Shown: positions 51,732 to 63,498 of the stretch, piece after piece
How the letters are laid out: each line of letters opens with the position of its first letter
How positions within the stretch are numbered: position 1 is the first letter of the stretch
From: Halocaridina rubra
Taxonomy: Eukaryota > Arthropoda > Malacostraca > Decapoda > Atyidae
Direction: 5' to 3'
Assembly (NCBI GenBank): GCA_037179515.1
Contig: JAXCGZ010015119.1
Location: 80,001 to 144,000 of the forward strand
DNA: 64,000 bases
Made by a program: the position numbers and the translations under genes
Notes under the pieces: model-generated
Told to the model about the DNA's origin: nothing
Seen by the model: only the letters and a program-made list of their open reading frames with translations
Databases searched by the model: none

Positions 51732-52018
51732 CTAATAGGAACTAAAGAAAATTTCTGTGGTTGGTTCCGCTTCGGTTGTCTCATCCTCTGTCATATCTAA
51801 CACCTCTTCTTCCGCTGTTTCGACTTGCTTGACGAGACCTTGCGACTCTAAGACACTGTTGAGCTGATGGAGTTTCTCATTGTTAGTTTTAGATACTTCA
51901 AGTTGTTCCACTACTAATGAATGGATCTTTAGTAAAGTCTCTCTCAGTTCTTGCACTTCACCACGGAGAACAGCAACCTCTGCCGAGCTGGTAACAGAGG
52001 AAACTCTGCGTTCACCAG
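51732..52018 (-). CDS. Ig gene exon x: coiled-coil and acidic tail, stop
   Basis: Acceptor attcatgacag; enters in phase 1 (C|CT = Pro). After GERRVSSVTSS come heptad-spaced hydrophobics (VAVLRGEVQELRETLLKIHS, then LVVEQLE), then an acidic Thr/Glu-rich tail (EEEVLDMTEDETTEAE) ending FFSSY and TAG. The tail replaces Ig5-Ig6 and the FN3 repeats of neuroglian. It is joined by phase and strand only; the acceptor is moderate and transcript proof is lacking. Confidence 0.72.

Positions 52019-63498: not shown

What the first reader, a model, noticed from the sequence alone, without database searches (positions are those of the whole stretch)
51732..63498. Seven-Ig hemolin-like protein built on the neuroglian Ig1-Ig4 block
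Ten - strand exons join in phase at every boundary and code for at least seven Ig units (the first only half in the window). Residues about 229-643 follow neuroglian Ig1 to Ig4 in order, including KSPPR, CIFGGE, HPRRT and GNYACNAT. The protein then leaves the neuroglian plan: no Ig5-6, no FN3, no membrane helix. Hemolins are known to correspond to neuroglian Ig1-4, but here three unrelated I-set Ig units precede that block. A soluble recognition molecule longer than classical hemolin is inferred.
Basis: partly seen in the sequence, partly recalled or inferred. Interest (0 to 1): 0.78.

Follow-up and report, generated by a model that had tools for sequence, protein, structure and literature searches.

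The report
Seven-Ig shrimp hemolin-like secreted protein
The window holds most of a shrimp gene for a secreted-type protein with seven immunoglobulin domains, a kind already described in farmed shrimp; new here is that it looks like two junction adhesion proteins joined end to end, with a helical tail that probably bundles copies together.

Summary
Ten minus-strand exons (63498-51732) splice in phase into 738 aa, identical to residues 120-857 of an annotated Halocaridina rubra protein (SK128_003822). The full protein has a signal-like N-terminus, seven Ig domains and no membrane helix. Twenty relatives (40-71% identical; 11 carry species names, all Malacostraca) were aligned; six have full-length ORFs on contigs of about 3 kb, which supports a single transcript.

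A seven-Ig hemolin-like protein whose last four Ig resemble hemolin is already in print for shrimp (LvHemolin, 2015), so this is a new member of a known kind.

(1) The first three Ig are not unrelated units: they match, in order, the three-Ig ectodomain of the DIP/lachesin group. (2) Exon 10 encodes a C-terminal heptad helix seen in 21 of 21 family members; 14 of 21 (not this one) have an extra cysteine before it. (3) Kinship with moth hemolin stays unresolved.

Best reading: a secreted, coiled-coil-multimerised protein joining DIP/lachesin-type and neuroglian-type ectodomains, used as a multivalent recognition or agglutination molecule. Anatomy is well supported; oligomer state and function are inferred.

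The parts
63358..63498 (-). exon 1 in window: second half of Ig A (lachesin/DIP Ig1-like) and the first residues of Ig B; the gene's 5' end lies outside the window
61697..61812 (-). exon 2: first half of Ig B
59145..59292 (-). exon 3: second half of Ig B (most conserved unit) and first residues of Ig C
58231..58346 (-). exon 4: first half of Ig C
56904..57064 (-). exon 5: second half of Ig C; ends in phase 1 just before the neuroglian-type block
55118..55898 (-). exon 6: Ig D, Ig E and start of Ig F (neuroglian Ig1, Ig2, start of Ig3); begins at KSPPR
54235..54340 (-). exon 7: middle of Ig F (neuroglian Ig3)
53660..53882 (-). exon 8: end of Ig F and first part of Ig G; weak donor GTTATTTA, yet the same join as in the annotated protein
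53070..53207 (-). exon 9: end of Ig G (neuroglian Ig4)
51732..52018 (-). exon 10: hinge, heptad (coiled-coil-like) helix and acidic tail, stop codon
59273..59718 (-). 62-bp tandem repeat: copies of the exon 3 acceptor plus about 20 exonic bases; six upstream decoy acceptors, each leading to an in-frame stop

Best explanation
This is the Halocaridina rubra member of a malacostracan family of secreted-type Ig proteins that corresponds in architecture to LvHemolin of Penaeus vannamei. It is built as [signal segment]-[three Ig of DIP/lachesin type]-[neuroglian-type Ig1-4 horseshoe]-[hinge, short coiled coil, acidic tail]. Shown: gene model, seven Ig, no membrane helix, ordered block homology, conserved heptad pattern. 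Inferred: secretion (from hydrophobicity alone); the helix makes oligomers (perhaps disulfide-locked where the extra Cys exists; not here); several horseshoes on one stalk give the avidity to bind and cross-link surfaces, microbial or haemocyte, as reported for hemolins. The confidence given covers family and architecture with an oligomer; I put immune use as such at about 0.55.
Against: The LvHemolin sequence was not in hand. Oligomer state is untested; the heptad run is short (28 residues scored) and this species gives the weakest control (15 of 500 shuffles as good); the coil is only 35% identical among 11 decapods. Predicted proteins P0007 and P0014 show no N-terminal hydrophobic segment. 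Ig B is 82% identical among decapods, which suits an endogenous partner at least as well as varied microbial ligands. AF2 pTM is 0.56, so domain arrangement across the whole is unsure.
Confidence: 0.72

Rival explanations
1. Epithelial function: a secreted junction or extracellular-matrix adhesion factor. Both halves resemble ectodomains of core septate-junction proteins (lachesin, neuroglian), so the soluble multimer would bind junction partners or the matrix of gut and gill epithelia and regulate barrier or adhesion; immune phenotypes would be secondary to barrier loss.
Against: No localisation data here. LvHemolin knock-down and agglutination data are reported as immune (recalled from the abstract of Zuo et al. 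2015, not read here). The kinship is firmer with the DIP/lachesin group than with lachesin itself.
Confidence: 0.3
2. True hemolin orthologue: the neuroglian-derived block of shrimp and moth hemolin come from one ancestral duplication, and moths lost the first three Ig.
For: In the 44-row tree the moth hemolin (1BIH) joins the family at 94/69.
Against: Only one hemolin was included and it sits on a branch of length 2.64; placing it with insect neuroglians (AU p 0.438) or with all neuroglians (0.255) is not rejected; with the family left out it joins an aphid neuroglian-like protein at 80/71, bootstrap not settled. Long-branch attraction is likely. PMC10559889 reports L. vannamei hemolin in a cluster apart from the lepidopteran ones (passage).
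Confidence: 0.2
3. Two adjacent genes (a lachesin-like one and a neuroglian-like one) wrongly joined by gene prediction.
For: The block border falls exactly at the exon 5/6 intron; P0001 is a prediction.
Against: Relatives with both blocks in one ORF on contigs of 2.76-3.04 kb (six proteins); no gaps at that junction in 7 of 7 relatives checked; both blocks joined in named decapods, a stomatopod and an isopod.
Confidence: 0.03

Closest known systems
LvHemolin, hemolin-like protein of Penaeus (Litopenaeus) vannamei (Zuo et al. 2015; seen only through passages of PMC10559889 and PMC9163686)
   Same: Seven Ig; last four like insect hemolin; crustacean; called secreted in PMC7768020
   Different: Sequence not compared directly; no coiled coil or lachesin kinship mentioned in the passages seen
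Insect hemolin (Hyalophora cecropia 1BIH)
   Same: Four-Ig horseshoe corresponding to neuroglian Ig1-4; no membrane helix
   Different: Only four Ig; no DIP/lachesin-type trio, no coiled-coil tail; common origin not shown
Arthropod neuroglian (e.g. Palaemon carinicauda P0037)
   Same: Ig1-4 in order, 35% identity over 57% of the query
   Different: Neuroglian goes on to Ig5-6, FN3 and a membrane helix and exists separately in the same species
Lachesin / DIP / IgLON three-Ig proteins
   Same: Three Ig in the same order, one collinear stretch
   Different: Those are (from recall) GPI-linked three-Ig proteins; here the trio is followed by four more Ig and a heptad tail

Membership tests
LvHemolin-type crustacean hemolin-like protein | seven Ig domains | tested here: met
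   14 Ig-type cysteines in P0001; AF2 model with seven Ig
LvHemolin-type crustacean hemolin-like protein | last four Ig like insect hemolin | tested here: met
LvHemolin-type crustacean hemolin-like protein | sequence orthology to the published LvHemolin | not tested
   Published sequence not available; P0005 (unnamed source) is probably penaeid (236 of 263 aligned positions identical to the Penaeus indicus P0046 N-terminus) and 65% identical to the query
LvHemolin-type crustacean hemolin-like protein | binds or agglutinates microbes | not testable with these tools
   needs recombinant protein
Insect hemolin | protein consists of four Ig only | tested here: not met
   seven Ig plus tail
Insect hemolin | shares one origin with moth hemolin | tested here: inconclusive
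   94/69 grouping, alternatives not rejected
Neuroglian / L1 family | Ig1-4 block | tested here: met
Neuroglian / L1 family | Ig5-6, FN3 repeats and membrane helix | tested here: not met
   stop in exon 10; Pfam families above their cut-offs in residues 120-857 are Ig-type only; KD19 beyond residue 35 at most 0.87 in P0001
Lachesin / DIP / IgLON (three-Ig) | three Ig matching in order | tested here: met
   DIP-theta, -alpha, -eta each one stretch over profile positions 29, 34 or 35 to 300; A-C to recalled lachesin Ig1-3, z 22.4, 30.4, 19.2
Lachesin / DIP / IgLON (three-Ig) | ends after Ig3 with a GPI signal | tested here: not met
   protein runs on into four more Ig and ends in an acidic tail without a hydrophobic end
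Lachesin specifically (rather than DIP) | closest to lachesin in sequence | tested here: inconclusive
Hemicentin (label in several database entries) | VWA domain, EGF domains, long Ig array (recalled definition) | tested here: not met
   Pfam families above cut-off are Ig or Ig-like only for residues 120-857; whole protein 857 aa

The most novel reading that the evidence does not exclude
A gene fusion at the base of Malacostraca joined the ectodomains of two septate-junction adhesion proteins, lachesin and neuroglian, dropped both membrane anchors and added a coiled-coil oligomerisation tail, turning a barrier-adhesion pair into a soluble multimeric recognition protein. The crustacean 'hemolin' would then have arisen independently of moth hemolin, by the same reuse of neuroglian Ig1-4.
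Probability: 0.45. Interest if true: 0.68.

Novelty: new member of a known kind. Interest (0 to 1): 0.42.

Why it matters
It places a shrimp immune protein whose first three Ig are said to have an unknown role in a family seen in decapods, krill, a stomatopod and an isopod, and gives those three Ig a likely kinship and the C-terminus a likely job. If right, it offers two direct tests: does the tail make oligomers, and is the protein an immune agglutinin or a junction factor? It also shows that database names (hemicentin-like, neuroglian-like) do not fit the family.

Tried and rejected
Two separate genes: rejected. Ordinary neuroglian truncated by prediction: rejected, since five species have both proteins (Scylla P0009/P0025, Cherax P0007/P0034, Palaemon P0004/P0037, Petrolisthes P0012/P0039, Armadillidium P0018/P0040). 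Dscam-like alternative Ig exons in the introns: none found. Timema P0102 as an insect relative with an N-terminal extension: set aside, its first 264 residues look non-Ig by eye and it is not among the 25 best rows for the N-terminal profile. A word-seeded search with the first three Ig alone found only one amphipod fragment, so it could not fetch a real lachesin; it neither supports nor refutes that kinship. Ig A alone gives polymeric Ig receptor chains as the top PDB hits by summed weak stretches (each stretch under 10 bits in the five entries shown); DIP-alpha at 30.4 bits is the best entry with a stretch that passes on its own. With the N-terminal trio, titin, Robo, MDGA1 and Dscam outrank DIPs by total score because their many Ig sum. 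Family plus malacostracan neuroglian as one clade not rejected (p 0.338), family plus insect neuroglian p 0.0527, so where in arthropod history the block split off is open. Foldseek on the whole model gives mostly multi-Ig chains with meaningless overall superposition. Copy number in H. rubra is unknown, as the own-genome search did not complete.

Counts and drops: the trees used 44 rows (21 family, 18 arthropod neuroglian or neuroglian-like, 4 vertebrate, 1 hemolin) of the 108 proteins found; the rest were left out. The N-terminal profile A2 used 9 of the 15 trios cut. The script label decapoda(12) stands over a list of 11. Of 20 relatives, 9 bear no species name. Papers: PMC10559889, PMC9163686, PMC7768020, PMC11999971, PMC4944128, PMC5070816 and PMC8006247 were seen as passages only; all others as listings. 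My not-found statement on a coiled coil or lachesin kinship rests on listings (searches matched 12,667 and 1,144 papers with 20 and 12 listed) in an open-licence library in which Zuo et al. 2015 did not turn up, so it is weak. That paper's abstract, and the GPI anchors of lachesin/DIP/IgLON, are recall.

Full report
What is there. A protein search returned an exact match, residues 120-857 of the 857-aa Halocaridina rubra protein SK128_003822 on a 236-kb contig, which names the species and completes the 5' end. That protein starts with a hydrophobic signal-like segment, has 14 Ig-type cysteines besides one in that segment, and shows no other hydrophobic stretch (KD19 at most 0.87 beyond residue 35, against 3.29 for the neuroglian membrane helix). 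No dedicated signal-peptide program was run. Pfam families above their cut-offs in residues 120-857 are all Ig-type, and none is found in the tail. AlphaFold2 on a 21-sequence alignment gives seven Ig units and a C-terminal helix 774-820 (mean pLDDT 81.3, pTM 0.56; helix pLDDT 74-81 for 781-810).

How widespread. Twenty relatives (P0002-P0021) are 40-71% identical. Eleven carry species names: Macrobrachium, Palaemon, Procambarus, Cherax, Homarus, Scylla, Eriocheir, Petrolisthes, the stomatopod Oratosquilla, the krill Meganyctiphanes and the isopod Armadillidium, labelled hemicentin-like, neuroglian-like or hypothetical. Six ORFs of 844-874 aa sit on contigs of 2.76-3.04 kb, so one mRNA most likely carries all seven Ig and the tail. 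Not all 21 are complete: 16 of 21 reach the first cysteine of Ig A; krill P0017 and the similar P0015 and P0016 go from the signal segment straight to Ig B (six Ig), P0018 starts inside Ig A, and P0019 is a fragment. The search is word-seeded, so absence outside Malacostraca is not shown.

The tail. Exon 10 encodes a heptad helix and an acidic end (12 D/E against 1 K/R in residues 813-857). All 21 family members have a 28-residue proline-free window with 6-8 of 8 a/d positions I, L, M, V or F; shuffles of the same tail did as well in 0-15 of 500 (15 is for this species, 9 for P0002). In 14 of 21 an extra cysteine precedes the helix; the seven without it are P0001-P0004 (this species, Macrobrachium, Palaemon and the unnamed P0002 that the tree puts with them), the isopod P0018, and P0020-P0021. 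Cysteine followed by a short coiled coil is a common way to lock oligomers (general knowledge). A multimeric stalk would explain agglutination without any lectin domain.

What is known. PMC10559889 (passages) states that LvHemolin of L. vannamei has seven Ig, that the last four are like insect hemolins, that the role of the other three is unknown, and that the L. vannamei protein clusters apart from lepidopteran hemolins. PMC9163686 (passage) calls its finding a surprise. PMC7768020 (passages) treats shrimp hemolin as a secreted antibacterial and antiviral factor lowered by LvFoxP silencing. I saw no mention of lachesin kinship or a coiled coil for a crustacean hemolin in the listings, but the key paper did not turn up in that library and two of those listings were short parts of long lists.

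Origin. A tree of the four-Ig block puts the family in one clade (100/100), apart from the 18 arthropod neuroglian rows (91/80), which include those of five species that have both proteins. Moth hemolin attaches to the family weakly and on a very long branch; moving it to the insect neuroglians costs 1.66 log units (AU p 0.438), and it goes among them when the family is absent. A family origin within malacostracan neuroglian is not rejected (p 0.338). The shared name hemolin is therefore a likeness of plan, not shown descent.

Function. Shown: no membrane anchor, multi-Ig, conserved tail pattern. Inferred: secretion, oligomer, multivalent binding. The two functional readings are an immune agglutinin or opsonin (favoured by the LvHemolin literature) and a soluble junction or matrix factor (favoured by the kinship with two core septate-junction proteins, PMC8006247 Table 1 passage, and by the conservation of Ig B, 82% among 11 decapods against 45% for Ig C). 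I put the immune reading at about 0.55 and the epithelial one at 0.3; they are not exclusive.

Verdict.

Noticed in passing
59273-59718 (-): A 62-bp unit repeated about 7 times is the exon 3 splice acceptor with the first ~20 exonic bases; six upstream decoy acceptors (59354, 59416, 59478, 59540, 59602, 59664) would each bring in an in-frame stop, so only the last acceptor (59292) gives the protein. Possibly a splicing switch or noise.
   Followed up: partly
13498-14052 (+): Open frame with a CTP_transf_1 domain (E 4e-27): probably an exon of a phosphatidate cytidylyltransferase (CDS) gene on the other strand.
   Followed up: partly
1416-3449 (+): 678-aa open frame with RVT_1 (E 6.1e-35), a reverse-transcriptase retroelement piece; part of it matches the odd C-terminus of the Oratosquilla family member P0014, whose annotation seems fused to such an element.
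   Followed up: partly
32187-33461 (+): 425-aa open frame with a DDE_1 transposase domain (E 1.6e-32).
   Followed up: partly
44383-44721 (-): Frame with a cysteine pattern that looked like a retroelement gag zinc knuckle by eye; Pfam finds no family.
   Followed up: partly
P0046 (Penaeus indicus): Database protein that begins as a family member (to about residue 260) and then turns into unrelated sequence with PAS/bHLH-type Pfam labels: it looks like a fused gene prediction.
   Followed up: no
window, e.g. 49335-49537, 50046-50219, 60047-60138, 61525-61687: Long perfect TA/AT and AG dinucleotide arrays (up to about 100 copies); 60047-60138 and 61525-61687 lie in an intron of this gene.
   Followed up: no
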